From Streptomyces kaniharaensis (lineage in GTDB: Bacteria > Actinomycetota > Actinomycetes > Streptomycetales > Streptomycetaceae), in NCBI RefSeq assembly GCF_009569385.1, contig NZ_WBOF01000003.1, positions 1 to 64,000 of the forward strand: a stretch of DNA of 64,000 nucleotides. Reading direction: 5' to 3'. Each line of letters opens with the position of its first letter. Within the stretch, counting starts at the first letter, position 1. Made by a program: the position numbers and the translations under genes. Shown in pieces: positions 13,138 to 28,097 of this stretch. The notes below the pieces were generated by a model. That model searched no databases and was not told the origin of the DNA. It saw only the letters and a list, made by a program, of their open reading frames with translations.

Positions 13138-14646
13138 TCACAATCCTTGGGCGAGGCGGTGGTAGGCCTGGTTCCAGCGCAGTTCCTTGGTGAACCGACG
13201 GATGTCCGTGTCGTCGTCGATCACCAGCAGCTCGACGCCGAGCATCTCGGCGAGGTCTTCCAGTTCCTCGGCCCCGAGCGCGCCGGAGAGCACGGTGTGG
13301 TGCGGCGCGCCGGCCGTCAGCCAGGCCTCGGTGGAGGTGTGCAGGTCCGGACGCGGCTTCCAGACGGCGCGGGCGACAGGCAGGCGGGGCAGCGGCGCCG
13401 GCGGCTCGACCACGTCCACCTCGTTGGCGACCAGCCGGAAACGGTGGCCCAGGTCGGCGAGGCCGACCACCACCGCGGGGCCGGGTTCGGCGTCGAAGAC
13501 CAGCCGGACCGGGTCCTCTCGCTCGCCGATGGCGAGCGGGTGGATCTCGCAGGAGGGGGTGGCCGCCGCGATGCTCGGGCAGACCTCCAGCATGTGCGCG
13601 CCGAGGATCAACTCGCGGCCGAACTCCAGGTGGTAGGTGTAGTCCTCCATGAAGGAGGTGCCGCCGGCCAGTCCGGTGGCGGCCGCCTTGAGGGTGCGCA
13701 GCAGGGTGGCGGTCTTCCAGTCGCCTTCGCCGCCGAAGCCGTAGCCGTCGGCCATCAGTCGCTGTACGGCGAGGCCGGGCAGTTGGCGCAGTCCGCCGAG
13801 GTCCTCGAAGTTGGTGGTGAAGGCCCGGAAGCCGCCCTGCTCCAGGAAGCCGCGCAGGCCGAGCTCGATCCGTGCCGCGTAGCGCAGCGACTCGTGGCAC
13901 TCCCCTTCGGCCCGCAGTTCGGGTGCGAGGCGGTAGCTGTCCTCGTACTCCTTGACCAGCGCGGTGACAGCGCCGTCGTCCGCCGCGTCGACGGCGGCGA
14001 CGAGGTCGTTGACGCCGTAGGTGTTGACGGAGACGCCGAAGCGGAGCTGGGCCTCGACCTTGTCGCCCTCGGTGACGGCGACGTCGCGCATGTTGTCGCC
14101 GAAGCGGGCGAGCTTGAGGCTGCGCAGTTCGGCGCGGCCGGCGGCGGCGCGGGCCCAGGTGGCGATCCTGGAGGAGACGGCCGGATCGGTGACGTGTCCG
14201 GCGACGGTCTTGCGGGGGACGCCGAGGCGGGACTGGATGTAGCCGAACTCGCGGTCGCCGTGGGCGGCCTGGTTCAGGTTCATGAAGTCCATGTCGATGG
14301 TCTGCCAGGGCAGTTCGACGTTGGCCTGGGTGTGCAGGTGGAGCAGCGGCTTCTGCAGGGCGTCGAGGCCGGCGATCCACATCTTCGCCGGGGAGAAGGT
14401 GTGCATCCAGGCGATCAGGCCGATGCAGTCGTCCGCGGAATTGGCTTCCAGGCAGACCCGGCGGATCGCGGCGGCGTCGGTGAGGACGGGCTTCCAGACG
14501 GTCTCGACCGGTACCGCGGCATCGCCGTCCAGAGCCTCGGCGATCCGCTGCGACTGCTCCGCGACCTGGCGCAGCGTCTTCTCGCCGTAGAGTCCCTGGC
14601 TGCCGGTCAGGAACCAGACCTGGCGGCCCTCCAGTGGCTTCTTCAC
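13138..14646 (-). CDS. araA: L-arabinose isomerase
   Basis: This 502-residue cytoplasmic enzyme converts L-arabinose to L-ribulose; family length is about 500. The sequence is collinear with Ara[21 protein letters not shown] at the N terminus, [14 protein letters not shown], the manganese/catalytic region with [18 protein letters not shown] and [10 protein letters not shown], and GAPHHTVLS near the C terminus. The two glutamates and two histidines of the active site are present. GTG 14646 is chosen because GAGGAG lies 7 nt upstream. It is the last gene of araB-araD-araA and is followed by a strong terminator. Confidence 0.96.
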
Positions 14647-14657
14647 GGGGTGGCTCC

Positions 14658-15326
14658 TCACCGGGCCTGGGGCTGGCCGTAGACGTTCTGGTAGCGGAAG
14701 TTGAGGCTGTCGATGTCGGCCTGCGCGATCGGCAGGGGCTCGCCGAGCTGGCGGGAGAGGTGGACGGTGCGGGTCACGTCCTCGCACATCACGGCGGCCT
14801 TGACGGCGGCCTTGGCGTCCTTGCCGATGGTGAAGACGCCGTGGTTCTGCATCAGGACGGCGGGTGAGCGGTGGCCCTTGAGGGTGTCCACGATGCCCCG
14901 GCCGATCGAGTCGTCGCCGATCAGCGCGAACGGGCCGACCGGGATCTCGGCGCCGAACTCGTCGGCCATCGCGGTGAGGACGCAGGGGACGGCCTCGCCG
15001 CGGGCGGCCCAGGCGCAGGCGTAGGTGGAGTGGGTGTGGACCACCCCGCCGACGTCGGGCAGATGGCGGTAGACGTAGGCATGCGCGGCGGTGTCGGAGG
15101 ACGGCGCGTGGTCGCCCTCGACCACGTTGCCGTCCAGGTCGCAGACGATCATGTTCTGCGGCGACAGTTCGTCGTAGGAGACGCCGCTCGGCTTGATGAC
15201 GAGCAGTTCCTCGCCGGGGACGCGGGCGGAGACGTTGCCGGCAGTCCAGACCACTAGGTTGTAGCGGACCAGTTCCTGGTGCAGGTCGCTGACCTGGCGG
15301 CGGACGGCGTCGATGGTCGCGTTCAC
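14658..15326 (-). CDS. araD: L-ribulose-5-phosphate 4-epimerase
   Basis: This 222-residue class II aldolase-fold enzyme interconverts L-ribulose 5-phosphate and D-xylulose 5-phosphate, the last step of bacterial arabinose catabolism. The zinc-binding VHTHSTYA motif (about residues 94-101) and the later histidine in LMQNHGVF are present, as is the N-terminal TAGNVSAR phosphate loop. The GTG start overlaps the araB stop by 4 bp (GTGA), implying translational coupling. araA follows after 11 bp. Confidence 0.95.
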
Positions 15327-17017
15327 ATGGCCTCGCTCGGGGTGGTGAGGGCGGCGTTCCGGATGTCGCGCAGGCGGTGCAGGAGTTTGTCGGCCCCGAG
15401 ACCGAAGTGGTCATGCAGGGCGCGGTACTCGGCGAAGAGCCGGTCGTAGGTGTCGGCGGCGGCCGGGTCCGGCTGGTAGGCGCCCGGGTGGACCCGGCCC
15501 ATGGCGGCGGCCGCGGTCCGTACGTCTGGGTACGCTCCGGCGGCGACGGCGGCGTGGATCGCCGAGCCGAGCGCGGGGCCCTGCTCGGACTCGGCGACAG
15601 AGACCGGGCGGCGCAACACGTCGGCGTAGATCTGCATCAGCAGGGCGTTCTTCTTGAGGCCGCCGGTGACGATGAACTCGGTGACGGGGACGCCGCCCTG
15701 TTCCAGGGCCTCGACGATGACGCGGGTGCCGAAGGCGGTGGCCTCCAGCAGGGCCCGGTAGATCTCCTCGGGTCGGGTGGCCAGGGTGAGTCCGACGATC
15801 ACGCCGGACAGGTGGTGGTCAACCAGGGTGGAGCGGTTGCCGTTCATCCAGTCGAGTGCCACCAGGCCGTGCGCGCCGACGGGCCCGGCGGCGGCCTTGC
15901 GGGTGAGCAGCTGGTGCAGGTCCTCGCCGTTGGCCTCGGCCTCGGCCAGGTAGTCGGCGGGGACGCCCTGGCGCAGCCACCAGGCGAAGATGTCGCCGAC
16001 GGCGCTCTGGCCGGCCTCGTAGCCGTAGGAGCCGGCGACGATGCCGTCCTGGACCACGCCGCAGATGCCGGGGACGTCGGCGAGCATCGCGCCGTTGACG
16101 ACGTGGCAGGTGGATGTGCCCATGATGGCGAGGAGTTGGCCGTTGTCGACGGCGCGGGCGGCCGGTGCGGCGACGTGGGCGTCGACGTTGCCGGCGGCGA
16201 CCGCGATGCCCTCGGGCAGGCCGGTCCACTCGGCGGCCTGCGCGGTGAGCGGGCCGACCCGGGAGCCGAGCGGGGCGAGCGGGTGCTCCAGGCGGGTGCG
16301 GGCGAAGTCGGCGAAGTCGGGGTGGAGCGCGGCGAGGTAGTCCTCGCTGGGGTAGCTCCCGTCCTGATGGATGCCCTTGTAGCCGGCCGTGCAGGTGTTG
16401 CGGCTCTCGGTGCCGGTGAGCTGCCAGACGATCCAGTCGGCGGCCTCGATCCAGCGCTCGCAGGCGGCGTAGACGGCCGGGTCCTCCTCCAGAACCTGGA
16501 GTGCCTTGGCGTACTGCCACTCGGCGGAGATCCTGCCGCCGTACCGGGAGATCCACTTCTCGCCGCGGGCGTGGGCCAGCGTGTTGATCCAGTCCGCCTG
16601 GCCCTGGGCCGCGTGGTGCTTCCAGAGTTTGGGCCAGGCGTGCGGGCGGGGCGCCCATGCGGCCGTCTCGGCCAGCGGGGTGCCGTCCGCGAGCACTGGC
16701 AGGACGGTGCAGGAGGTGAAGTCGGTGGCGATCCCGATGACGTGGGCCGGGTCGATGCCGGCGGTGGCGAGCGCGGCCGGGACGGCGGTGCGCAGCACCT
16801 CCCACCAGTCCGCGGGGTGCTGCAGCGCCCAGTCGGGCGGGAGCGGCCGCCCGGTGCCGGGCAGTTCATGCTCGATGACGGCGTGCGGGTAGTCGTGAAC
16901 GGCGGTGCCCACCTCCTCGCCGTCCCGCACCCGGACCACCACGGCGCGGCCGGAGAGGGTGCCGAAGTCGACGCCGACGACATATCGGTCCGAGTCGTGC
17001 GCTGCGCGATCAGTCAC
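15323..17017 (-). CDS. araB: Ribulokinase
   Basis: This 564-residue FGGY-family kinase phosphorylates L-ribulose; E. coli AraB is 566 residues. [19 protein letters not shown] is the N-terminal phosphate loop, [14 protein letters not shown] is the adjacent motif, and the ATP domain has [13 protein letters not shown] and [23 protein letters not shown] 17017 has AAGGATGAGG upstream and gives the family length; an upstream GTG at 17053 is possible. First gene of the arabinose operon; its promoter overlaps LacI-type operators at 17210-17242. Confidence 0.95.
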
Positions 17018-17209: not shown

Positions 17210-17255
17210 TGTTAACGCTCACATGGAGTGTTAGCGCTAACAATTACGCTGTCAA
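17210..17255 (-). promoter_or_regulatory. araB promoter with two LacI-type operators
   Basis: On the minus strand, TTGACA (17255-17250) and TAACAC are separated by 16 bp, a good sigma-70-like promoter. The perfect palindrome TGTTAGCGCTAACA (17229-17242) fills the spacer. A second site, TGTTAACGCTCACA (17210-17223), lies at the start of transcription. Repressor bound here should block the araB-araD-araA promoter. Confidence 0.8.
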
Positions 17256-17303: not shown

Positions 17304-18335
17304 TCAACGCCGGATGGCGGGGCCCACGCTGTGCCGCAGCACCATCTCCGGGGAGATCTCCAGATGGGTGCGGGAAACGGCGCCGCCCTCCAACTCGTCG
17401 AGGAGCAGTTCAAGGGCCTTGCGGCCGAGTTCGCCGAAGTCCTGCCGCACGGTGGTCAGCGGCGGGATGAAGTAGGCAGCCTCCGGGATGTCGTCGAAGC
17501 CGACCACGCTGATGTCGTCCGGGACCGACCGGCCGGCCTCGTGCAGGGCGCGCAGCAGGCCGAGGGCCATGTGGTCGTTGGCACAGAAGACGGCGGTGAC
17601 GTCCCGCAGTCCGGCGATCCGCAGACCCGCCCGGTAGCCCGAGCGGGCGCTCCAGTCGCCGCGCTCCACTTCCGGCACGGGGGCTCCGGCCGCCCGCAGC
17701 GTGAGGCGCCACCCTTCCTCTCGGTCCTTGCTCTCCAGCCAGTTGGCCGGGCCCGCCAGGTGGTGCACGGTGCGGTGGCCCAGGTCAAGCAGGTGCCCGG
17801 TGGCCTCTCCGGCCCCGAAGCGATTGCCCACCGACACCATGGGCACCCGGCTCTGGTTGCCCGAACCGACCGCGACGAGCGGCACAGAGCTGGAGAGCCG
17901 GGCCACCGCGCTGACGGTGGAGGTCTGCGGCACGATCACGACGACGCCCTCCACCCCCTGGTCGCGCAGCCGGTCGACGGCTTCCTGGACCGAACGGCCG
18001 TCCAGGGAGCGCAGACTGGCCACGCTCACGAAGTACCCGGCGCTGCGCGCGGCCCGCTCGATGCCGTCCAGCATCGAGGCGGGCCCGTAGAGGGTCGAGT
18101 CGAAGCTCACCACGCCGAGGGTCTGCGACCGGCGGGTGACCAGGGCGCGGGCGGCGGAGTTGGGCCGGTAGTCCAGCTCCCGGATGGCCGCCAGCACCCG
18201 GTCTCGGGTGTCCGGCCGGACGTGCGGGGCGCCGTTGAGCACCCGGGACACAGTCTGGTGGGACACACCCGCCAGTTTCGCCACGTCCGCCATCACGGGC
18301 TGACGCTGTTCCGTCCCGGTGCTATCGGCTTCCAC
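17304..18335 (-). CDS. LacI-family transcriptional repressor
   Basis: This 343-residue regulator has an N-terminal helix-turn-helix, DVAKLAGVSHQTVSRVLNG (about residues 16-34), the hinge helix NSAARALVTRRS, and a periplasmic-binding-protein-like sugar domain ending DDISVVGFDDIPEAAYF. GTG 18335 is chosen with GGAGGGG 7 nt upstream. It sits between the arabinose operon and the divergent sugar importer, both of which carry matching operators. It is therefore the likely repressor, induced by arabinose or a related sugar. Effector identity is inferred from context. Confidence 0.92.
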   Translation of the reverse strand: MEADSTGTEQRQPVMADVAKLAGVSHQTVSRVLNGAPHVRPDTRDRVLAAIRELDYRPNSAARALVTRRSQTLGVVSFDSTLYGPASMLDGIERAARSAGYFVSVASLRSLDGRSVQEAVDRLRDQGVEGVVVIVPQTSTVSAVARLSSSVPLVAVGSGNQSRVPMVSVGNRFGAGEATGHLLDLGHRTVHHLAGPANWLESKDREEGWRLTLRAAGAPVPEVERGDWSARSGYRAGLRIAGLRDVTAVFCANDHMALGLLRALHEAGRSVPDDISVVGFDDIPEAAYFIPPLTTVRQDFGELGRKALELLLDELEGGAVSRTHLEISPEMVLRHSVGPAIRR

Positions 18336-18599: not shown

Positions 18600-19682
18600 G
18601 TGCGGAAGATTTCTGCGGGCCTCGTCGCTGCAGGCCTGGCGCTCTCGTTGGCGGCCTGCGGGCAGAGCGGCAATGGGGTCGGCGACGGGGCGGCCAAGGG
18701 CGGGCTCGTCGGCATCGCGATGCCGACCAAGTCGTCGGAACGCTGGATCAACGACGGCACCAACATGGTCAAGGAGTTCCAGGCCAAGGGCTACAAGACC
18801 GACCTGCAGTACGGCGACAACGTGGTGGAGAACCAGGTCTCCCAGATCGAAAACATGATCACCAAGGGCGCCAAGCTGCTGGTGATCGCCGCCATCGACG
18901 GCTCCTCCCTCACCAACGTGCTGCAGAAGGCCGCCGACGCCCACGTCCCGGTGATCTCCTACGACCGGCTGATCCGCGGCACGGCGAACGTCGACTACTA
19001 CGCGACCTTCGACAACTACAAGGTCGGCGTCCTCCAAGGCAGCTACATCGCGGACAAGCTCGGCCTCAAGGACGGCAAGGGCCCGTTCAACCTCGAGCTC
19101 TTCGCCGGCTCGCCGGACGACAACAACGCCGGCTTCTTCTTCAACGGCGCGATGAGCGTTCTCAAGCCGTACATCGACGAGAAGAAGTTGGTCGTGCAGA
19201 GCGGCCAGACCGACTTCAACCAGGTTGCCACGCTGCGCTGGGACGGCGGTGTCGCCCAGTCCCGGATGGACAACCTGCTGAGCAAGGCCTACACCTCGGC
19301 CCACGTCGACGCCGTACTGTCGCCGTACGACGGCATCTCGATCGGCATCCTCTCCTCACTCAAGGGCGTCGGCTACGGCAGCGCCAAGTCGCTGCCCGTC
19401 GTCACCGGCCAGGACGGCGAACTGGCCTCGGTGAAGTCGATCATCGCGGGCGAGCAGACCCAGACCGTCTACAAGGACACCCGCCAACTGGCCAAGGTGG
19501 CCGTCCAGATGGGCGACGCACTGCTCACCGGCGGCAAGCCCGAGGTCAACGACACCAGCCAGTACAACAACGGCGTGAAGACCGTCCCGGCGCAGCTGCT
19601 CCAGCCGGTCAGTGTCGACAAGGACAACTACCAGAAGGTCCTGGTCGACAGCGGCCAGTACACCGCGGACCAGCTCAAGTAG
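18600..19682 (+). CDS. chvE: Monosaccharide ABC transporter, sugar-binding lipoprotein
   Basis: This 360-residue secreted lipoprotein has signal peptide and lipobox LAAC (Cys 20) followed by a periplasmic-binding-protein type I fold: [39 protein letters not shown] and [13 protein letters not shown]. It resembles the ChvE multiple-monosaccharide family, which binds L-arabinose, galactose and related sugars. GTG 18600 has GGAGGA just upstream. It is the first gene of chvE-mmsA-mmsB, driven from an operator-controlled promoter at 18467-18494. Arabinose as substrate is inferred from neighbours. Confidence 0.92.
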
Positions 19683-19777: not shown

Positions 19778-21325
19778 ATGGCCGGACCCGTTCTCGAAAT
19801 GCGGTCGATCAGCAAGTCGTTCCCCGGCGTGAAGGCACTTTCCGAGGTCAACCTGAGCGTCGCCGCCGGTGAGGTGCACGCCGTCTGCGGCGAGAACGGC
19901 GCCGGCAAGTCCACCCTGATGAAGGTGCTCAGCGGCGTCTACCCGCACGGCGCCTACGAGGGCGAGATCCTCTTCGAGGGTGAGCCCTGCCGGTTCAGGG
20001 ACATCCGGGCCAGCGAGCAGCGCGGCATCGTCATCATTCACCAGGAACTGGCGCTGGTGCCGTACCTGTCCATCGCCGAGAACGTCTTCCTCGGCAACGA
20101 GCACGCCTCCCGGGGCATCATCCGCTGGCACCGCACGCTCACCCACGCCGCCGAACTGCTGCGCCAGGTCGGCCTCGACGAGAGCCCGCACACCAGGATC
20201 GCCGACCTCGGCGTGGGCAAGCAGCAGCTGGTGGAGATCGCCAAGGCGCTGGCCAAGAAGGTCAAGCTGCTCATCCTGGACGAGCCGACCGCAGCGCTGA
20301 ACGACGAGGACAGCCGCAAGTTGCTCGACCTGATCCTGGAACTCAAGGCGCAGGGCATCTCCTGCATCGTCATCTCGCACAAGCTGAACGAGATCGCCCG
20401 GGTCGCGGACGCCGTGACCATCCTGCGCGACGGGCGGACCGTCGAGACCATCGCGATCGGCCCCGGGGGCATCTCCGAGGAGCGGATCATCCGCGGCATG
20501 GTCGGCCGCGACCTGGAGCACCGCTACCCCGAGCGCACACCTGACATCGGCGAGGTCGCCTTCGAGGTCGAGGACTGGAGCGTGCGCCACCCGCTCGACC
20601 AGCAGCGCATGGTGGTGGACGGCGCCTCGCTGAACGTGCGGCGCGGTGAGATCGTCGGCATCGCCGGCCTGATGGGCGCCGGGCGCACCGAACTGGCGAT
20701 GAGCGTCTTCGGCCGCTCGTACGGGCGGTGGGCCGCCGGGCGGGTGCGGCTGCACGGCCGGGAGATCCGCACCCGGACGGTGCCGGAGGCGATCGGGCAC
20801 GGCATCGCGTACGTCACCGAGGACCGCAAGCAGCTCGGCCTCAACCTCATCGACGACATCAGCCGGAACATCTCGCTGAGCGCGCTCGGCAAGGTCGCCC
20901 GGTACGGCCGCGTCGACCGGCACGAGGAGGCCAAGGTCGCCGAGTCCTTCCGTCGGACCATGAACATCAAGGCCCCGACCGTGTTCGCCCGGACCGGCAC
21001 GCTCAGCGGCGGCAACCAGCAGAAGGTCGTCCTCAGCAAGTGGATCTTCGCCGAGCCGGAGGTGCTGATCCTCGACGAGCCCACCCGCGGCATCGACATC
21101 GGCGCGAAGGCGGAGATCTACACCGTCATCGCCGAACTCGCCGCCCAGGGCAAGGCCGTACTCGTCATCTCGTCCGAACTTCCCGAACTCCTGGGTCTGT
21201 GCGACCGGATCTACACCATGGCCGAAGGCCGGATCACCGGCGAGGTCGCACGCGCCGACGCCACCCAGGAATCCCTCATGCGGCTCATGACCATGAGCGC
21301 CGCATCCAGCAACGAGCAGGTGTGA
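19778..21325 (+). CDS. mmsA: Monosaccharide ABC transporter, ATP-binding protein
   Basis: This 515-residue duplicated ATPase of the monosaccharide importer class has domain 1 with [12 protein letters not shown] (Walker A), [14 protein letters not shown] and [11 protein letters not shown]. Domain 2 has the usual degenerate Walker [11 protein letters not shown], the signature [13 protein letters not shown] and [14 protein letters not shown]. It energises uptake with the MmsB permease and ChvE-like binding protein. The upstream gap of 95 bp lacks a clear ribosome binding site. ATG 19778 is the start consistent with family N termini ([15 protein letters not shown]). Confidence 0.94.
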
Positions 21326-21328
21326 GGC

Positions 21329-22564
21329 ATGGCCCAGACCGAGATCATCCCGGATTCGTCCCCGAAGGCACCGCAGGCCGGCCCCAGCCCCTCCATCGGC
21401 TCCATCCTGGCCCGCGCGCTGCAGGGCAACGTGCGCCAGTACGGCATGCTGGTCGCACTCGCGCTGATCGTGCTGCTGTTCCAGATCTGGACGGACGGCA
21501 TCCTGCTCCAGCCGCTCAACATCACCAACCTGATCCAGCAGAACGGCTACATCCTCATCCTGGCGATCGGGATGATGATCGTCATCATCGCCGGGCACAT
21601 CGACCTCTCGGTCGGCTCGCTGGCCGCCTTCGTCGGGGCCGCCGCCGCGGTGATGATGGTCAAGCACCACGTGCCGTGGCCCGTGGCGATGCTGGCCGCG
21701 CTGGTGATCGGCGCCCTCGCCGGCGCCTGGCAGGGCTTCTGGATCGCCTATCTGGGGATCCCCTCGTTCATCGTCACCCTGGCGGGCATGCTGCTGTTCC
21801 GTGGGGGCACCCAGATTCTCCTGCAGGGCCAGTCGGTGGCGCCGTTCCCCAAGGGCTTCCAGAGCATCAGCAGCGGCTTCCTCCCCGAGGTCGGCCCGCA
21901 CACCGACTACCACAACCTCACCCTGCTGCTGGGCCTCGCCGTGCTGGCCGTCGCGATACTCCAGGAGGTGCGCGGCCGGCGGCAGACCGCCTCGTACGGG
22001 CTGGAGCTGCTCCCGCTCGGACTGTTCGTCGCCAAACTCGCCGTGATCACCGCGGCCGTGGCCGTCTTCACCCTGCTGCTGGCCAGCTACCACGGCGTGC
22101 CGATCGTGCTGCTGATCCTCGGCGCCCTGCTGGTCGGCTTCGGCTACCTGATGCGCAACTCGATCATCGGCCGGCACACCTACGCCATCGGCGGCAACGA
22201 GGCGGCGGCGAAGCTGTCCGGAGTGAAGAGCAAGCGGGTCGTCTTCCTCGCCTTCACCACCATGGGCGTCCTCGCGGCGCTCGCCGGACTGGTCTTCGCC
22301 GCTCGCCTCAACGCCGGCACCCCGCAGGCCGGCATCAACTTCGAACTGGAGGCCATCGCCGCCGCGTTCATCGGCGGCGCCTCCGCCAGCGGCGGCGTGG
22401 GAACCGTCCTCGGCGCCATCATCGGCGGCCTGGTGCTCGGCGTACTGAACAACGGCATGTCGCTGGTCGGCGTCGGCACCGACTACCAGCAGGTCATCAA
22501 GGGTCTGGTGCTGCTCGCGGCCGTCGGATTCGACGTCTACAACAAGCGCCGGGCCGGCTCCTGA
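21329..22564 (+). CDS. mmsB: Monosaccharide ABC transporter, permease
   Basis: This 411-residue integral membrane protein of the XylH/MmsB permease family has about ten hydrophobic segments and the family signatures AGHIDLSVGSLAAFVGA and NEAAAKLSGVKSK. A GGASASGGVGTVLGAIIGGL segment lies near the end. It starts 3 bp after the mmsA stop, so the two are translationally linked. It forms the channel for the sugar bound by the ChvE-like lipoprotein. No gene for a second permease is present, consistent with a homodimeric channel. Confidence 0.94.
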   Translation: MAQTEIIPDSSPKAPQAGPSPSIGSILARALQGNVRQYGMLVALALIVLLFQIWTDGILLQPLNITNLIQQNGYILILAIGMMIVIIAGHIDLSVGSLAAFVGAAAAVMMVKHHVPWPVAMLAALVIGALAGAWQGFWIAYLGIPSFIVTLAGMLLFRGGTQILLQGQSVAPFPKGFQSISSGFLPEVGPHTDYHNLTLLLGLAVLAVAILQEVRGRRQTASYGLELLPLGLFVAKLAVITAAVAVFTLLLASYHGVPIVLLILGALLVGFGYLMRNSIIGRHTYAIGGNEAAAKLSGVKSKRVVFLAFTTMGVLAALAGLVFAARLNAGTPQAGINFELEAIAAAFIGGASASGGVGTVLGAIIGGLVLGVLNNGMSLVGVGTDYQQVIKGLVLLAAVGFDVYNKRRAGS

Positions 22565-22688: not shown

Positions 22689-22718
22689 CGGCAACCTCTT
22701 TCGCACCGGCGGCAACTG
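22689..22718 (+). promoter_or_regulatory. Candidate ECF-type promoter of the GH74 gene
   Basis: CGGCAACCT (22689-22697), an 8-nt spacer and CCGGCGGCAACTG (22706-22718). The same two blocks with the same 8-nt spacer stand before the expansin gene (25550-25579). The arrangement resembles an ECF sigma promoter; about 121 bp separate it from the GH74 start. Confidence 0.55.
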
Positions 22719-22839
22719 ACAGGCGACACCGAGGGCGGAACACCCTCGGGTCGTCCCCATCACACCGCCGACCACCGCTGCGTCCCCGCCCGAACGGGCC
22801 GGTTTCACGGCGGCGGGGCCGAAGCAAGGAGTAGCCCGC

Positions 22840-25461
22840 ATGAACGAGACGGACCCCACGACGAACGGTCGTGGCCGACGCCCCCGCGGGCGCCACCGTC
22901 GGCGCTGGACCACGCTGGGCCTGGCCCTGGGCGTGCCCGGCGTGCTCGGCCCGTACCTGCTCTTCGTGCAGGCCGACTCCAACGCGGCATCCGTGGATCC
23001 CGACGCGTACTACACCCTGGTGTCCGTCCGCAGTGACAAGGCCCTGGACGTGCCCGGTGCGGACGCCGCAGACGGCGCCTGGGCCCGGCAGATGAACCGC
23101 GTCGCCGGGGCCGCGAGCCAGCAGTGGCGGCTGCGACTGGCGGGGGACGGCTACTACGAGCTGGAGAACCGCAGCACCCACAAGGTCCTCGGAGTGCGCG
23201 GTGGTTCCTCTCAGCCCGTTGCCGCCGTCGAGCAGCAGACCGACCGCGCCGCCGCCGCCCAGCAGTGGCGGATGCAGGACGTCGGCGGCGGAGCGGTGAA
23301 GTTCGTCTCCCGCGGCAGCGGCATGGTGCTGGACGTCTGCGGCGGCGGCAAGGAGGAGGGCGTACCGCTCATCCAGTACGGCGACATTGGCAGCACCAAT
23401 CAGCAGTGGAAGCTGGTCAAGGTGTCCGGCACGGGCGGGTACACCTGGCACAACGCACAGATCGTCGGCGGCGGTTTCGTCACCGGACTGGTCTTCAACC
23501 CCGCCCGCAAGGACCTGCTGTACGCCCGGACCGACATCGGCGGCGCGTACCGCTGGGACGCCGCCGCCGGACGGTGGACCTCGCTGACCGACTGGATCGG
23601 CGGCGCCGACTGGAACCTGCTCGGGGTCGAGAGCCTGGCGACCGACCCGGTCGACCCGAACCGGCTGTACCTCGCCAGCGGCACCTACACCAACGACTGG
23701 GCGGGCAACGCCGCGATCCTGCGCTCCACCGATCAGGGCCGGACGTTCCAGCGCACCGACCTGCCGTTCAAGCTGGGCGGCAACGAGGACGGCCGGTCCA
23801 TGGGCGAGCGGCTGGTGGTGGACCCCTCCGACCACCGCACGCTCTACCTGGGCACCCGCAAGAACGGCCTCTGGCGCAGCACCGACTACGGCGCGACCTG
23901 GAGCCAGGTCGGCAGCTTCCCCGTCAAGGACGGTGCGAGCAGCGGCGTCGGCCTGTCCTTCGTGACCTTCGGCCCGTCCGGCAGCAGGACGATCTACGTC
24001 GGGGTCGCCGACAAGTCGACCTCGCTGTACCGTTCCACCGACGGCGGCGCCACCTGGCAGGCCGTCCCCGGCCAGCCGACCGGCCAGCTGCCGCAGCACG
24101 GCGTGCTGTCCGGCGACGGCTCGTTCTACCTGACGTACACCAACGCGCCCGGCCCGAACGGGGTGACGGCCGGCTCGGTGTGGAAGTACACGCCGTCCAC
24201 CGGGGACTGGAAGAACGTCTCGCCATCCAGTGGCAATTACGGCTTCGCCGGTCTCGCGGTCGACCCGCAGCACCCGGCCACGGTGATGGTCACCACGCTG
24301 GACCGCTGGTGGCCCTCCGACGAGCTCTACCGCTCGTCCGACGGTGGCGCCACCTGGAAGGCACTCGGCGCGACCTCGGTGCGAGACGACTCCGCAGCAC
24401 CGTACGTGGGGACCGGCATCGGGCACTGGATGGGCGCGCTGGCCATCGATCCCTTCGACCCCGGACACGTGCTGTACGGCACCGGCTCCGGCATGTGGGG
24501 CAGCACCGACGTGACGGCGGCGGACAGCGGGCGTCCGACGCACTGGACCGTCCCCGCAAGAGGCATAGAGGAGACCGCGACGCTCGGACTGATCAAGCCC
24601 CCCGGTCTCCCACTGATCAGCGCGCTCGGCGACGTCAGCGGATTCCGGCACGACGACCTGACCAAGGTCCCCGCCAAGGCGCTGAGCGGACCGCTGTTCA
24701 CCAACACCACCGGCATCGACTTCGCCCAGGGCAAGCCGGAGTTCATGGTTCGGGTCGGCCTCGGCGGCGCGCAGCACGGCGCCTGGTCGACCGACGGCGG
24801 AGCCGGCTGGACTCCTTTCGCGGCGGCTCCGGTGAACGACGCGGGCGGCGGTTCCACGGCCGTCTCGGCGGACGGCGGCACCGTGGTGTGGACCCCGGCG
24901 GGCCAGGCGCCGTTCCTCTCCACCACCCGGGGCGCCTCCTGGGCGGCGGTCTCCGGTCTGCCCAAGGACGCGACCGTGGTGGCCGACCGTTCGGCGGCGA
25001 ACACCTTCTACGCCCTCAGCGGCGGCGCCCTGTACGCCTCCACCGACGGCGGGCGGCACTTCACCACCCGGGCCACCGGGCTGGGCGACGGGCAGCTCAA
25101 GGCCGTCCCGGGCGTCGCCGGTGACCTGTGGATCGCCGGCGGGGGCAACGGGCTGCGGCACTCCACCGACGGCGGGGCGACCTTCCGCAGGCTCGACGGT
25201 GTTGAGCAGGCGGGCGCCGTCGGTTTCGGCAAGGCGGCGCCCGGAGCCGGCTACCAGGCCATCTACCTGAGCGGAAGAATCAAGGGCGTCATCGGCCTGT
25301 TCCGCTCCACCGACGGCGGCTCGACCTGGGTCCGGATCAACGACGACCAGCACCAGTTCGGCGGGAGCGTCATCAACGTCATCTCCGGCGATCCCGATGT
25401 CTACGGCCGGGTGTACCTCGGCGGCTACGGCCGCGGCGTGGTCTACGGCGACCCGTCCTGA
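22840..25461 (+). CDS. Secreted xyloglucanase, ricin-type lectin plus GH74
   Basis: This 873-residue enzyme has an Arg-rich start and hydrophobic core (about residues 24-45), a signal peptide or anchor. Residues about 55-200 form a ricin-type beta-trefoil with three Q-x-W repeats (QQWRLR, QQWRMQ, QQWKLV). The rest is a two-propeller GH74 module beginning WHNAQIVGGGFVTGLVFNPA, with the characteristic ARTDIGGAYRWD and many STDGGATW Asp-box repeats. GH74 enzymes cleave the xyloglucan backbone of plant walls; the lectin probably binds wall sugars. AAGGAG lies 9 nt before the ATG. It is separated from mmsB by 275 bp and has its own candidate promoter. Confidence 0.93.
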   Translation: MNETDPTTNGRGRRPRGRHRRRWTTLGLALGVPGVLGPYLLFVQADSNAASVDPDAYYTLVSVRSDKALDVPGADAADGAWARQMNRVAGAASQQWRLRLAGDGYYELENRSTHKVLGVRGGSSQPVAAVEQQTDRAAAAQQWRMQDVGGGAVKFVSRGSGMVLDVCGGGKEEGVPLIQYGDIGSTNQQWKLVKVSGTGGYTWHNAQIVGGGFVTGLVFNPARKDLLYARTDIGGAYRWDAAAGRWTSLTDWIGGADWNLLGVESLATDPVDPNRLYLASGTYTNDWAGNAAILRSTDQGRTFQRTDLPFKLGGNEDGRSMGERLVVDPSDHRTLYLGTRKNGLWRSTDYGATWSQVGSFPVKDGASSGVGLSFVTFGPSGSRTIYVGVADKSTSLYRSTDGGATWQAVPGQPTGQLPQHGVLSGDGSFYLTYTNAPGPNGVTAGSVWKYTPSTGDWKNVSPSSGNYGFAGLAVDPQHPATVMVTTLDRWWPSDELYRSSDGGATWKALGATSVRDDSAAPYVGTGIGHWMGALAIDPFDPGHVLYGTGSGMWGSTDVTAADSGRPTHWTVPARGIEETATLGLIKPPGLPLISALGDVSGFRHDDLTKVPAKALSGPLFTNTTGIDFAQGKPEFMVRVGLGGAQHGAWSTDGGAGWTPFAAAPVNDAGGGSTAVSADGGTVVWTPAGQAPFLSTTRGASWAAVSGLPKDATVVADRSAANTFYALSGGALYASTDGGRHFTTRATGLGDGQLKAVPGVAGDLWIAGGGNGLRHSTDGGATFRRLDGVEQAGAVGFGKAAPGAGYQAIYLSGRIKGVIGLFRSTDGGSTWVRINDDQHQFGGSVINVISGDPDVYGRVYLGGYGRGVVYGDPS

Positions 25462-25468
25462 CCGGCAC

Positions 25469-25511
25469 GGCCCGTGGGCGGGCGGGGATCTGCGCCGCCC
25501 GCCCACGGGCC
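25469..25511. terminator. Terminator after the GH74 gene
   Basis: A perfect 17-bp stem (25469-25485 with 25495-25511) and 9-nt loop begins 8 bp after the GH74 stop. Confidence 0.8.
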
Positions 25512-25549
25512 GGCCCCGGGAGAACGCCGGGAAGAAACCTGCGCCAGCG

Positions 25550-25579
25550 CGGCAACCTTTCCGTTCCCGGCGGCCACTG
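25550..25579 (+). promoter_or_regulatory. Candidate ECF-type promoter of the expansin gene
   Basis: CGGCAACCT (25550-25558), 8 nt, then CCGGCGGCCACTG (25567-25579), matching 22689-22718 in both blocks and spacing. It ends 39 bp before the start codon, a suitable distance for a short leader. Confidence 0.55.
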
Positions 25580-25618
25580 GGCAGTGCAACGTCGAGTCGA
25601 TCTACCGAATGGACAGGA

Positions 25619-26638
25619 ATGAGGGCAACGAAGCACGCCGCCCCGCAGTCGAACCGCAGGCGTGGGCTGGTCATGGGCATTCCGTTGGCGCTGGTGGCGG
25701 TCGGTGTACTGGTGTGCCTGGCCTTCGCGCTCCTGCCACGGGGCGGGGGCGGCACGGGTGCCGCGGAGCCGGCTGCCGTTGCCTCCGCCGCGGCCACCGA
25801 GCCGAGCGCGCCTCCCGGCACCGGCGTCCCGGCCGATCCCACGCCCTCGGCGGCACCGCCGTCGGTCACCAGCCCCTCGCCCGCCGCCACCGGCACCCCG
25901 TCGCCGTCGGCCAGTCGCACGCCGCAGCCGTCGACCCCCGTCGCCACCTCCACCAGGGCCACCCCGTCACCGTCGGCCGCCACCGGCGGTGCCGGCGCCG
26001 CGCCCGCCACGGCGTCCCTGGCCGGGCGGATCAAGCCCGGGACGAGCTACCAGGGCGTCGCGACCTCCTACGACGCCGCCGACGGCAACGGCGCCTGCTC
26101 GTTCGGCCCGTCCGGCGACCTCATGATCGCGGCGATGAACCACACCGACTACGAGTCGTCCAGGGCGTGCGGGGCCGCCGTACTCGTCCGCGCCGCCAAC
26201 GGGGCGAGCATCACGGTGCGGATCGTCAACGAGTGCCCCTTGCCCTGCGCGCCCGGGCAGCTCGACCTCAGCCACGAGGCCTTCGCCAAACTGGCTGATC
26301 TCTCGGTGGGCCGCCTCCCGGTCACCTGGACGGTGCTGAGCCCCGGCGCGGCGCCGGACACGATGTCGATCCGCTACAAGACCGGGTCCAGCCAGTGGTG
26401 GTGCGGGATCCAGGTGATCGGCCACCGGAACCCGGTGGCGGCGCTGGAGGTCCGGACCGCCGGCGGCTGGCGGCAGCTGTCCCGCACCGACTACAACTAC
26501 TTCCTCTCCCCCGACGGAAGCGGGTGCGGCGGACCGATCAGGGTCACCGACGTCTACGGGGAGCAACTGACCGTCGACGGGATCGCGGTGAAGCCGGACG
26601 TCGCCCAGCCGACCCGAGTCCAGTTCGCCCGGCATTGA
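25619..26638 (+). CDS. Expansin-like wall-loosening protein
   Basis: This 339-residue exported protein has a transmembrane/signal segment near residues 18-40 and a long Pro/Ser/Thr/Ala-rich linker (about 45-135). The double-psi beta-barrel domain contains GVATSYDAADGNGACSFG and the conserved Asp in QLDLSHEAFAKLA. A C-terminal CBM63-like domain has SSQWWCGIQVIGHRNPVAAL and GGWRQLSRTDYNYF. This order is that of bacterial EXLX1-type expansins, which loosen cellulose/xyloglucan networks without hydrolysis. ATG 25619 follows GGACAGGA closely. Its pairing with GH74 xyloglucanase and a shared promoter motif point to joint attack on plant walls. Confidence 0.9.
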   Translation: MRATKHAAPQSNRRRGLVMGIPLALVAVGVLVCLAFALLPRGGGGTGAAEPAAVASAAATEPSAPPGTGVPADPTPSAAPPSVTSPSPAATGTPSPSASRTPQPSTPVATSTRATPSPSAATGGAGAAPATASLAGRIKPGTSYQGVATSYDAADGNGACSFGPSGDLMIAAMNHTDYESSRACGAAVLVRAANGASITVRIVNECPLPCAPGQLDLSHEAFAKLADLSVGRLPVTWTVLSPGAAPDTMSIRYKTGSSQWWCGIQVIGHRNPVAALEVRTAGGWRQLSRTDYNYFLSPDGSGCGGPIRVTDVYGEQLTVDGIAVKPDVAQPTRVQFARH

Positions 26639-26729
26639 CCGCGCCGCTCGCCCGTCGGCCGGCAGTGATCCCCCGCCGGGGCGACCACCGCCCCACCCCG
26701 GAGACCGGCACTGCTACGCTCAAGCCGGT

Positions 26730-26743
26730 TGTTAACGCTCACA
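26730..26743 (+). promoter_or_regulatory. LacI-type operator before the ECF sigma gene
   Basis: TGTTAACGCTCACA, identical over 14 bp to the site at 17210-17223 in the araB promoter and one mismatch from the reverse complement of the importer site. It lies 26 bp before the sigma start codon. No clear sigma-70 promoter boxes are seen around it. Confidence 0.7.
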
Positions 26744-26769
26744 TTGCAGGGAGAGGGCGACCGGGGGAA

Positions 26770-27300
26770 ATGCTCCTCGATGACGCGTCCGCGGAGTTCC
26801 ACGACTTCTTCGAACGCCACTACTCCGAACTCGCCCGCCTCGCCCACCTCCTGACCGGCGAGACGGATGCGGCCGACGACCTCGCCGCAGACGCCCTGAT
26901 CGCCCTGTGGCAACGCTGGGACCGGCTCCGCGCCGCCGACCACCCACTCGCCTACGCGCGCGGGGTGGTCGCCAACATAGCCCGGGCCCGGATCCGCAGC
27001 GCAGTCCGCGAGCGACGCCGGGTCCTGCTGTTCTGGTCCCGCAACCCGGAGAAGACGGAAGGCCCCGACGTGGCAACCGTGCTGGACGTCCGCGCGGCGC
27101 TCGCCCGGCTGCCGTTCCGCAAGCGGGCGTGCGTGGTACTGCGCTTCGCCTTCGACCTGTCGGAGAAGGACACCGCCGTGGCACTGGGCATATCGGTCGG
27201 TACGGTGAAGAGCCAGACCTCGAAGGGGATGGCCGAGCTGGAACGCGTACTCGGCGCACGAGCGGTCGGCGAACTGGCGACAGGAAGGAGGAACCGGTGA
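26770..27300 (+). CDS. ECF RNA polymerase sigma factor, SigE family
   Basis: This 176-residue sigma-70 group 4 factor has region 2 with FFERHYSELARLAHLLTG and AADDLAADALIALWQRWDRL. Region 4 has ARLPFRKRACVVLRFAFDLS and ALGISVGTVKSQTSKGMAEL (helix-turn-helix). Length and spacing match the actinobacterial SigE-family ECF group. The start ATG 26770 follows GGGGGAA. A LacI-type operator identical to the arabinose one stands 26 bp upstream. The next gene, overlapping by 4 bp, is a membrane protein likely to control it. The shared motif before the GH74 and expansin genes is the best candidate for its target promoter. Confidence 0.9.
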   Translation: MLLDDASAEFHDFFERHYSELARLAHLLTGETDAADDLAADALIALWQRWDRLRAADHPLAYARGVVANIARARIRSAVRERRRVLLFWSRNPEKTEGPDVATVLDVRAALARLPFRKRACVVLRFAFDLSEKDTAVALGISVGTVKSQTSKGMAELERVLGARAVGELATGRRNR

Positions 27301-28097
27301 ACGAGGACATCGCCCGGGGGCTGCGCGAGGCCGCCGACGCCCACCAGCCCGACCGCGCACGGATCCTGGCCCGCGTCGAACGCGGCGCGGCCGGCCCTCC
27401 CGTCCGCCACCGCACACCATCGTTCGCGAGATCGTGGCCCAGGGCCGCCCTCGCGAGCCTCGCCACCGCCGGCATCCTGGCGACCGGCGGCCTGGCCGTG
27501 GCCGGCATCGTCCGGATGCCGGCCCCGTCGGACACCGTCGCCCCCACTCCGGCCACCCCGACGGCCACCCCGTCCCCGACGGTCACCCCGTCCCCGGCGG
27601 TCACGCCTTCACTGACGCCATCGACTGCCCCGAGCACCGTCGCCCCGGCACCTGTACCCACCCCGGCCAGTCCACGCCCGACCTCCTCGGCGAGCAGCCG
27701 CCCTGCGAACGGATCGCTGTGGTCGGAGGGATCGGTCGACTCGCACAGCACGGTCTACTGGTCCCAGCACAACCTCGTCCTCAAGACCACCCAGCCGCTC
27801 ACCTCGCTCACCGTCGAGCTGCGGATCACCCAAACCGGCGAGGTCCACGACACCGGGAACTGGCGGACCCTGCCGAGCGAGGACTTCACGGTCACCGTCC
27901 AGGAGTCCGGCGGCGTGCTGGTCTACCGCTGGGTCCTCAAGCCGGGCCACACGGTTCCGGTCGGACAGCACGAATTCGCCGGCCAGTTCAACCACGCCAC
28001 CGGCGTGCGCAGCGCCGCGAACGACAGCTACCGGGTCGATGCCCAGTCGGCCGGCGGCCCCGCCTCGGTATGGGGAGGGTTCGGCCCGGCACGCTGA
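27297..28097 (+). CDS. Putative transmembrane anti-sigma/sensor partner of the ECF factor
   Basis: This 266-residue protein has a cytoplasmic N terminus of about 45 residues (EDIARGLREAADAHQPDRAR) and one membrane helix (ALASLATAGILATGGLAVAG). Next come a Pro/Thr/Ser-rich stalk of about 85 residues (ATPTATPSPTVTPSPAVTPS) and an external beta-rich domain from SVDSHSTVYWSQHNLVLKTT to the end. GTG 27297 overlaps the sigma stop (GTGA) with AAGGAGG 6 nt upstream, so it is translationally coupled. The topology is that of a membrane anti-sigma with an outside sensor, but no zinc-binding anti-sigma motif is present, so the role is inferred. Confidence 0.75.
   Translation: MNEDIARGLREAADAHQPDRARILARVERGAAGPPVRHRTPSFARSWPRAALASLATAGILATGGLAVAGIVRMPAPSDTVAPTPATPTATPSPTVTPSPAVTPSLTPSTAPSTVAPAPVPTPASPRPTSSASSRPANGSLWSEGSVDSHSTVYWSQHNLVLKTTQPLTSLTVELRITQTGEVHDTGNWRTLPSEDFTVTVQESGGVLVYRWVLKPGHTVPVGQHEFAGQFNHATGVRSAANDSYRVDAQSAGGPASVWGGFGPAR

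What the first reader, a model, noticed from the sequence alone, without database searches (positions are those of the whole stretch)
22689..28097. Possible pentose-gated ECF sigma cascade for plant-wall attack
A GH74 xyloglucanase, an expansin, an ECF sigma factor and a coupled membrane protein form one block beside araBDA, a LacI regulator and a sugar importer. Operator sequences tie the sigma gene to the arabinose genes, and a second shared motif ties the two wall-active genes together. I infer: repressor senses pentose, sigma is made, a membrane partner gates it from outside, and sigma activates enzymes that release the sugar. I know of no described system with this gene order.
Basis: partly seen in the sequence, partly recalled or inferred. 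Interest (0 to 1): 0.8.

Follow-up and report, generated by a model that had tools for sequence, protein, structure and literature searches.

The report
Sigma switch for plant-wall enzymes
A soil actinobacterium carries a conserved gene pair, a sigma factor with a membrane protein, that goes together with a shared promoter-like sequence in front of plant-cell-wall-degrading enzymes and whose own gene carries the same repressor site as the arabinose genes, suggesting a two-step control that is still untested.

Summary
The window has araBDA, a LacI repressor, a ChvE-GguAB importer, a GH74 xyloglucanase, an expansin, a SigE-family ECF sigma factor and a membrane protein. The 15-base LacI-type operator occurs exactly twice in the 8.77 Mb genome: before araB and before sigma. 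The second motif is a probable ECF promoter (GGCAACC-N12-GCGGCNACTG); its four best genome-wide matches lie at GH74, the expansin, and two wall-enzyme genes of a second locus that has its own sigma (83% identical), membrane partner and operator.
Comparison supports the sigma-motif link. In 121 family genomes all 38 with the motif match the partner's ectodomain; none of 49 without a match has the motif (own genus: 18 of 18 with a close match, 0 of 10 others). In three relatives lacking the pair, close GH10/GH62 genes have no motif, and GH10 has a LacI-type operator, so the sigma step was probably inserted into an older LacI circuit.
Not shown: that pentose is the inducer, that the membrane protein restrains sigma, or that it binds glycan. 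Its ectodomain is a confidently modelled beta-sandwich of unassigned family. New variant of a known kind: ECF/membrane-partner polysaccharide regulation, with LacI control of sigma supply.

The parts
13138..14649 (-). araA, L-arabinose isomerase
   Evidence: NF002795 807 bits, cut-off 622
14658..15326 (-). araD, L-ribulose-5-phosphate 4-epimerase
   Evidence: NF005123 383 bits, cut-off 251
15323..17017 (-). araB, FGGY-family ribulokinase
   Evidence: PF02782, PF00370; position between araD and the operator
17210..17224 (.). LacI-type operator TGTTAACGCTCACAT before araB
   Evidence: exact; one of two exact copies in the genome
17229..17242 (.). perfect palindromic LacI-type operator TGTTAGCGCTAACA before araB
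17304..18335 (-). LacI-family repressor (putative pentose regulator; start codon uncertain)
   Evidence: PF00356, PF13377
18479..18494 (.). LacI-type operator between lacI and chvE
18600..19682 (+). chvE, multiple-monosaccharide binding protein
   Evidence: NF040907 554 bits, cut-off 460; PDB ChvE 3urm E 2.8e-142
19778..21325 (+). gguA, importer ATPase
   Evidence: NF040905 871 bits, cut-off 810
21329..22564 (+). gguB, importer permease
   Evidence: NF040906 566 bits, cut-off 450
22690..22718 (+). predicted ECF promoter of GH74
   Evidence: exact motif match; 121 nt before the start codon
22840..25461 (+). secreted RICIN-GH74 xyloglucanase
   Evidence: PF14200; PDB 2cn2 E 1.6e-195
25551..25579 (+). 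predicted ECF promoter of the expansin
   Evidence: exact motif match; 39 nt before the start codon
25619..26638 (+). expansin, EXLX1 type
   Evidence: NF041144 238 bits, cut-off 100 (on a longer frame with the same end); PDB 9ms5 E 4.7e-69
26715..26720 (+). -10-like TACGCT of the sigma gene promoter
   Evidence: TGnTAnGCT seen by eye in upstream regions of relatives; inference
26730..26744 (.). LacI-type operator just after the -10-like site, before sigma
   Evidence: exact; at most 1 mismatch within 80 nt of the sigma start in 19 of 53 relatives, reversed control never better than 4
26770..27300 (+). ECF sigma factor, SigE family
   Evidence: TIGR02983 166 bits, cut-off 141.6
27297..28097 (+). 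membrane partner (putative sensor/anti-sigma), overlaps sigma by 4 nt
   Evidence: no Pfam or NCBIfam hit; sigma next to it in 53 of 55 relatives
27441..27512 (+). predicted transmembrane segment of the partner (about residues 49-72)
   Evidence: hydrophobic stretch seen in the sequence; no topology program was run; low model confidence there
27705..28094 (+). beta-sandwich ectodomain of the partner
   Evidence: AlphaFold model, nine strands, block pLDDT 76-97 over residues 141-266

Best explanation
This is a two-tier switch for secreted plant-cell-wall enzymes. A LacI-family repressor, probably the one encoded beside araBDA, sits on an operator just downstream of the -10-like site of the sigma gene and on matching operators at araB and chvE, so sigma is made only when a cytoplasmic sugar (probably a pentose) lifts repression. 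The SigE-family sigma then directs RNA polymerase to promoters of the form cGGCAACCTTT-N9-GCGGC[A/C]ACTG (-35 GGCAACC; -10 about C[A/C]ACTG at usual ECF spacing) before GH74 xyloglucanase, expansin, GH10-GH62 and related genes, near or far from the sigma gene. The co-translated single-pass membrane protein probably controls sigma activity through two short cytoplasmic helices and a beta-sandwich outside. Shown by comparison: operators, motif, paralogous locus, co-occurrence, conserved gene order. Inferred: repression, inducer identity, sigma-promoter recognition, gating and glycan sensing.
For: Genome-wide specificity of operator and motif. Second locus in the same genome with paralogous sigma, partner and operator, and motifs before GH10-RICIN-GH62, pectinesterase-GH28 and a RICIN protein. 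In 57 loci (1.07 Mb) the motif occurs 24/17/28 times at 0/1/2 mismatches against 0/1/24 for the reversed control; 34 of the 41 hits at up to 1 mismatch precede a recognised wall gene on the same strand within 1600 nt. Positions outside the search pattern are conserved too: C before GGCAACC 98%, T after it 98% (41 partly related sites). Motif in 38 of 121 family genomes: 38 of 72 with a partner-ectodomain match, 0 of 49 without (Fisher p 1.1e-11); own genus 18 of 18 with a close match, 0 of 10 others. Distant sites keep the motif: in G110 two sites lie 3.7 Mb from the partner gene, one before a GH10-GH62 gene. In S. fildesensis the operator stands at one sigma gene and at araB on different contigs. 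In three relatives without the pair, GH10 has a LacI-type operator and no motif. The -35 and spacing resemble sigma-E promoters of S. coelicolor, GGCAACC-N16/17-CGTC (passages of PMC6767563).
Against: No expression, footprint or binding data. In the 121 genomes only the partner's ectodomain was sought, not the sigma itself; the pairing is carried over from 53 of 55 other loci. 6 of 40 genomes with a close partner match show no motif at up to 1 mismatch, and 28 of 32 with a distant match show none, so part of the family uses another promoter or regulon. At 2 mismatches the motif is near background (28 against 24; 26 against 14 for up to 2 mismatches in 8 genomes). Operator at sigma is absent in Saccharothrix, Amycolatopsis and Lentzea. 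In genomes that have the pair, 1 of 17 GH10 genes has an operator and 4 of 17 have neither element, and LacI palindromes lie between expansin and GH62 in G134 and G055. The partner matches no anti-sigma family; its fold matches are generic beta-sandwiches. Co-occurrence counts treat related genomes as independent. Motif-type GH10 genes form one clade (91/94), so the change may have happened once.
Confidence: 0.66

Rival explanations
1. LacI alone sets sigma activity through sigma gene transcription; the membrane protein is not a gate but a tether or a surface protein of the same operon. Some actinobacterial ECF factors are controlled by transcription, as S. coelicolor SigE is.
For: No anti-sigma domain found in any of 38 partners; transcriptional control of ECF39 SigE is described (passages of PMC8999054).
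Against: 4-nt gene overlap in the window and sigma-partner pairing in 53 of 55 loci; 15 of the first 30 residues are invariant or nearly so across 38 sequences, while the linker has none.
Confidence: 0.22
2. The shared motif belongs to another regulator or another ECF sigma; the sigma here is a co-inherited bystander.
For: ECF promoters overlap in sequence; the -35 element is also used by S. coelicolor sigma-E.
Against: 0 of 49 genomes without a partner match have the motif, although such genomes usually hold many ECF factors (recalled); the motif is kept at sites far from the partner gene; two paralogous pairs in one genome both sit among motif genes.
Confidence: 0.08
3. The circuit is as described but the inducer is not a pentose, or a different LacI paralogue binds the sigma operator.
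For: Another LacI gene in S. flavotricini carries a similar operator (L129); ChvE-GguAB is a multiple-monosaccharide importer; operators also lie before other genes.
Against: Exact operator identity with araB in the window; operators at araB or lacI-chvE recur in genomes that have one at sigma.
Confidence: 0.35

Closest known systems
Clostridium thermocellum SigI/RsgI biomass-sensing sigma systems
   Same: Alternative sigma factors that control plant-polysaccharide enzymes (listing, review passages); membrane RsgI with extracellular sugar-binding domain (recalled)
   Different: Here the sigma is a SigE-family ECF, the partner matches no Pfam family in the window, and the sigma gene carries a LacI-type operator
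Bacteroides ECF sigma/anti-sigma polysaccharide loci
   Same: ECF sigma with membrane partner controlling glycan enzymes (review passages)
   Different: No SusCD-like neighbours among the genes identified; actinobacterial; no FecR-like Pfam hit; extra LacI layer
Actinobacterial ECF52/ECF53 with carbohydrate-binding extensions (SCO4117)
   Same: Actinobacterial ECF linked to an extracellular sugar-related domain (passages)
   Different: There sigma and sensor are one protein with a zinc finger; here two proteins. SCO4117 acts in antibiotic production and differentiation
Streptomyces LacI regulators of hemicellulases (BxlR; CebR recalled)
   Same: LacI repressor ties sugar uptake to secreted enzymes (passages)
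   Different: Here LacI appears to act on enzymes through a sigma factor; the reported BxlR site CGAANxTTCG differs

Membership tests
SigE-family ECF sigma (TIGR02983) | Score over the curated cut-off; regions 2 and 4 present | tested here: met
   166.2 bits against 141.55; PF04542 and PF08281
ECF-type promoter | AAC core -35 and a -10 at 16-17 nt spacing | tested here: met
   GGCAACC then CNACTG after 16 nt, geometry as
ECF-type promoter | Transcription start just after the -10, dependent on the sigma | not testable with these tools
   No transcript data
LacI-family repressor circuit | LacI HTH and sugar-binding domain; palindromic operators at own regulon | tested here: met
   Domains, operators; binding itself not testable
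Canonical membrane anti-sigma (zinc-finger or class I ASD, RsgI_N, FecR) | Recognisable anti-sigma domain in the cytoplasmic part | tested here: not met
   No such Pfam hit in 38 partners at E 0.5, by sequence only; about 45 cytoplasmic residues with two short helices
Carbohydrate-binding module sensor | Membership of a CBM family | tested here: inconclusive
   Only one of 38 members hits a CBM model, CBM_AftD, E 0.0007; Foldseek lists CBM2 and CBM3 chains among generic beta-sandwiches
GH74 xyloglucanase | Full-length GH74 catalytic domain | tested here: met
   Residues 200-873 aligned to 2cn2, E 1.6e-195; activity not testable
ECF52/ECF53 | Sigma fused to transmembrane and sugar-binding extension | tested here: not met
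   Sigma is 176 aa and separate from the partner
ECF group number in the Casas-Pastor scheme | Assignment by that scheme's models | not testable with these tools
   Models not held

The most novel reading that the evidence does not exclude
A two-key system: a cytoplasmic LacI sugar sensor sets how much sigma exists, and a previously undescribed minimal membrane anti-sigma, with a two-helix cytoplasmic part and a beta-sandwich that reads insoluble wall glycan, sets whether it works. The pair was inserted into an ancestral direct LacI-to-enzyme circuit and is found across several actinobacterial families as the plant-wall regulon switch.
Probability: 0.4. Interest if true: 0.75.

Novelty: new variant of a known kind. 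Interest (0 to 1): 0.62.

Why it matters
A 2024 review says that ECF control of hemicellulase genes is less understood and that the sugar-linked actinobacterial ECF52/53 cases lack experimental validation (passages). This locus gives a defined sigma, a defined promoter-like sequence, a defined operator and a natural with/without comparison among relatives, so the question can be tested directly. It could also give a promoter and sensor pair for enzyme production in actinobacteria.

Tried and rejected
First motif search used a wrong spacer (N14 instead of N11) and found 29 hits, fewer than its control (42); discarded. A trial family search (PF07833) only served to learn the genome's size. The ectodomain as a named CBM: no clear support; in the structural re-alignment the highest rows were pilin and adhesin Ig-like domains, and no CBM row was in the 50 shown, which does not exclude one. 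Repeated independent rewiring of GH10: not supported, motif-type genes form one clade. S. sp. CB01881 holds both a motif-type and an operator-type GH10 gene. Of the 41 motif hits at up to 1 mismatch, 7 do not precede a recognised wall gene: L093 and L100 look like chance inside coding sequence, L064, L067 and L104 lie before what look like broken expansin or GH74 genes, L068:8700 precedes an unassigned secreted-type protein, and L083 was not resolved; all were left in the counts. Automatic start calls picked wrong frames in some of these. L104 was left out of the partner alignment because its frame looks shifted; 36 named relatives, the second locus and the window were aligned, out of 55 fetched plus these two. 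The ectodomain profile used 26 of these 38. PDB sequence search with the RICIN protein's C-terminal part gave nothing. Literature: ten searches listed no paper that, by title or opening lines, describes this sigma, partner or regulon; only open-licence PMC papers are held, so absence is not proof. Read as passages only: PMC10766802, PMC12772271, PMC8999054, PMC6767563; all others as listings. Confidence in the best explanation was lowered from 0.68 to 0.66 on rechecking, because sigma itself was not sought in the 121 genomes.

Full report
WHAT IS THERE. The window is the first 64 kb of a 0.78 Mb contig of an 8.77 Mb, high-GC genome. The genus is probably Kitasatospora: one genome of the same unnamed genus (G067) has its motif sites at the coordinates of the S. 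novaecaesareae NRRL B-1267 contig L059, and the placing of that strain in Kitasatospora is recalled. Reading left to right: araA, araD and araB on the minus strand, a LacI regulator on the minus strand, then on the plus strand ChvE-GguA-GguB, RICIN-GH74, expansin, a SigE-family ECF sigma factor, and a 266-residue membrane protein whose gene overlaps sigma by 4 nt.

OPERATORS. TGTTAACGCTCACAT is found at up to 2 mismatches five times in the genome, with no hit of the reversed control. Exact copies stand before araB (17210) and before sigma (26730), a variant stands between lacI and chvE (18479), one stands at a second locus on contig 1, and one elsewhere (C1:3334153, not examined). A perfect palindrome TGTTAGCGCTAACA also lies before araB at 17229. 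In 53 relatives with a readable sigma gene, the operator (degenerate form TGTTARCGYDCACAT) lies within 80 nt upstream at up to 1 mismatch in 19; the best reversed-control score in any of them is 4 mismatches. These 19 are Streptomyces, Kitasatospora, Streptacidiphilus and similar loci, where it follows a TGnTAnGCT, a vegetative -10-like element (by eye). A further group (L064, L066-L068, L070-L073, L087) has what look like diverged sites at 3-5 mismatches, which for most is within the control's range. Saccharothrix, Amycolatopsis, Lentzea and Catenulispora lack it. In 8 named genomes the operator has 5 to 15 hits per genome at up to 1 mismatch against 0 or 1 for the control. These 8 were picked among loci whose sigma already showed the site, so a site before sigma in each is by choice; the new information is that others fall at araB and at lacI-chvE. 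In S. fildesensis one sigma is on contig 432 while araB, with a second sigma beside it, is on contig 21, each with an operator. 30 of the 69 hits were read with flanks, and genes there were named by eye from their translations.

SECOND LOCUS. The motif search showed a cluster on contig 1. It holds a sigma 83% identical to the window's, a partner 55% identical, an operator at 2 mismatches before sigma, and the motif before three genes: GH10-RICIN-GH62, pectinesterase-GH28, and a RICIN protein with an unassigned C-terminal part.

THE MOTIF. In 57 loci (window, second locus, 55 relatives fetched by the partner protein alone) the pattern GGCAACC-N12-GCGGCNACTG is found 24, 17 and 28 times at 0, 1 and 2 mismatches, against 0, 1 and 24 for the reversed pattern. 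Of the 41 hits at up to 1 mismatch, 34 precede a recognised wall gene on the same strand within 1600 nt (expansin 14, GH74 9, GH10 9, RICIN protein 1, pectinesterase-GH28 1) and 7 do not. A downstream reading frame was called for 39; its start lies 25-75 nt after the motif in 26 and 110-135 nt in 4; the other 9 lie elsewhere, several with a doubtful start. Columns outside the pattern are conserved (C before GGCAACC; T after it in 98%, 83% and 76%), giving cGGCAACCTTT...CGGCGGC[A/C]ACTG. GGCAACC with CNACTG 16 nt later matches the geometry of S. coelicolor sigma-E promoters (GGCAACC-N16/17-CGTC) but with another -10 (passages of PMC6767563). In 8 whole genomes with the pair the motif was found in all 8 at up to 2 mismatches, 26 hits against 14 for the control, so at that looseness half may be chance.

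CO-OCCURRENCE. Among 121 genomes of the family (own genome included), the motif at up to 1 mismatch is in 38 (94 hits, my sum of the table; reversed control 3 hits in 3 genomes). A profile of the partner's ectodomain matches 72 of the 121. All 38 motif genomes are among the 72; none of the 49 others has the motif (Fisher p 1.1e-11). For close matches (E up to about 6e-50) it is 34 of 40, for distant ones 4 of 32. In the own genus it is 18 of 18 with a close match against 0 of 10 others, one of which (G131) has a weak match; p 7.6e-8. These p-values ignore shared ancestry, and sigma itself was not sought in these genomes. Motif sites far from the partner gene exist: in G110 at 3.45 and 3.52 Mb against 7.22 Mb, one of them before GH10-GH62.

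WITH AND WITHOUT. To ask whether the motif is missing only because the target genes are missing, GH62 was sought in 20 genomes that I chose: found in 6 of 6 own-genus genomes with the pair, in 3 of 10 own-genus genomes without a close partner match, and in 0 of 4 others without it. In those three (G091, G119, G122) the GH10 and GH62 genes are 81-93% identical to those of the second locus and the best motif match in the fetched stretches has 4 mismatches. A LacI-type palindrome at 0-1 mismatches stands before GH10 in all three, and further ones lie before or near GH62. Four stretches from genomes with the pair all carry the motif at 0-1 mismatches. In two of them (L259, L260) a LacI-type palindrome lies between the expansin and a GH62 gene, so that GH62 may keep direct LacI control. 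Of 20 GH10 sequences with readable upstream DNA, 12 have the motif, 4 the operator (three from the genomes without the pair, one from S. sp. CB01881, which has the pair and also a motif-type copy) and 4, all from genomes with the pair, have neither. In their tree the 12 motif-type genes form one clade (91/94); the backbone is weak. The simplest reading is one replacement of direct LacI control by sigma control in one GH10 lineage.

GENE ORDER. In 53 of 55 relatives a sigma homologue stands next to the partner; the two others begin at a contig edge inside the partner. 40 of 55 have at least one of the queried wall genes at 55% identity or more in the held flank: expansin 22, GH74 17, GH62 16, GH10 12, RICIN protein 6; 10 have ChvE/Ggu or ara genes and 5 the LacI at 70% or more. 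No random-locus baseline was run. The 15 without are L083, L090, L093, L096-L098, L100-L103, L106, L107, L109, L112, L113; several are short contigs and several belong to a more distant subgroup. Expansin precedes sigma in most Streptomyces/Kitasatospora-type loci, GH74 in most of Saccharothrix, Amycolatopsis and Lentzea, and GH10-GH62 follows the partner in several Streptomyces. So the ara genes are next door in a minority only; the constant core is the pair plus wall enzymes.

THE PARTNER. Across 38 sequences, 15 of the first 30 residues are invariant or nearly so, the linker has no such residue, and the ectodomain is again conserved. The AlphaFold model (38 sequences, mean pLDDT 71.9) gives two short N-terminal helices (3-15, 20-30; block pLDDT about 70) and a nine-strand beta-sandwich at 141-261 with block pLDDT 76-97; the hydrophobic segment and linker are low. 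Foldseek and VIA-align give many unrelated beta-sandwiches, among them CBM2 and CBM3 chains in Foldseek (TMt about 0.51-0.55) and pilin or adhesin Ig domains at Z about 11-12. The fold class is therefore known, the function is not. No Pfam anti-sigma domain was found.

MECHANISM AND VERDICT. The best account is LacI control of sigma supply plus sigma-driven wall-enzyme promoters, with the partner as likely activity gate. The first part is well supported by comparison, the second by pairing and domain layout only. A 2024 review states that ECF control of hemicellulases is less understood and that actinobacterial ECF52/53 cases lack experimental validation (passages of PMC10766802). None of ten literature searches listed this system. 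I rate it a new variant of ECF/membrane-partner regulation.

Noticed in passing
L057:13836-14090 (G000:C1:2661833-2662093): A remnant of a second partner ectodomain lies on the plus strand between the second sigma gene and GH10-GH62: a trace of a duplicated pair.
   Followed up: partly
L057:7682-9508: RICIN protein whose 368-residue C-terminal part has no Pfam or PDB sequence match, yet is 83-86% identical in six relatives' loci and follows a motif at 1-2 mismatches in L057, L065 and L068: possibly an undescribed wall-active enzyme.
   Followed up: partly
Streptomyces fildesensis, G007:C21:99463-101100 (L122, L130): A second sigma gene of the same type stands beside araB with a LacI-type operator before each; what appears to be the same genome, seen as G069, has a partner match there.
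   Followed up: partly
L092, L099, L104 (Amycolatopsis): LacI-type palindromes lie 70-225 nt upstream of the motif before GH74 or its remnant rather than before sigma: the two controls may be combined at the enzyme gene there.
   Followed up: no
L059:8158, L060:8009, L061:7975: An extra motif copy lies upstream of the expansin where no GH74 gene was found in the held stretch: perhaps the promoter of a lost GH74 gene.
   Followed up: no
window:43329-44876: A GH19 chitinase gene is followed at once by a thaumatin-family gene.
   Followed up: no
L104 (Amycolatopsis rifamycinica): Partner reading frame looks shifted and GH74 appears degraded, while the motif is exact: possibly a decaying copy.
   Followed up: no
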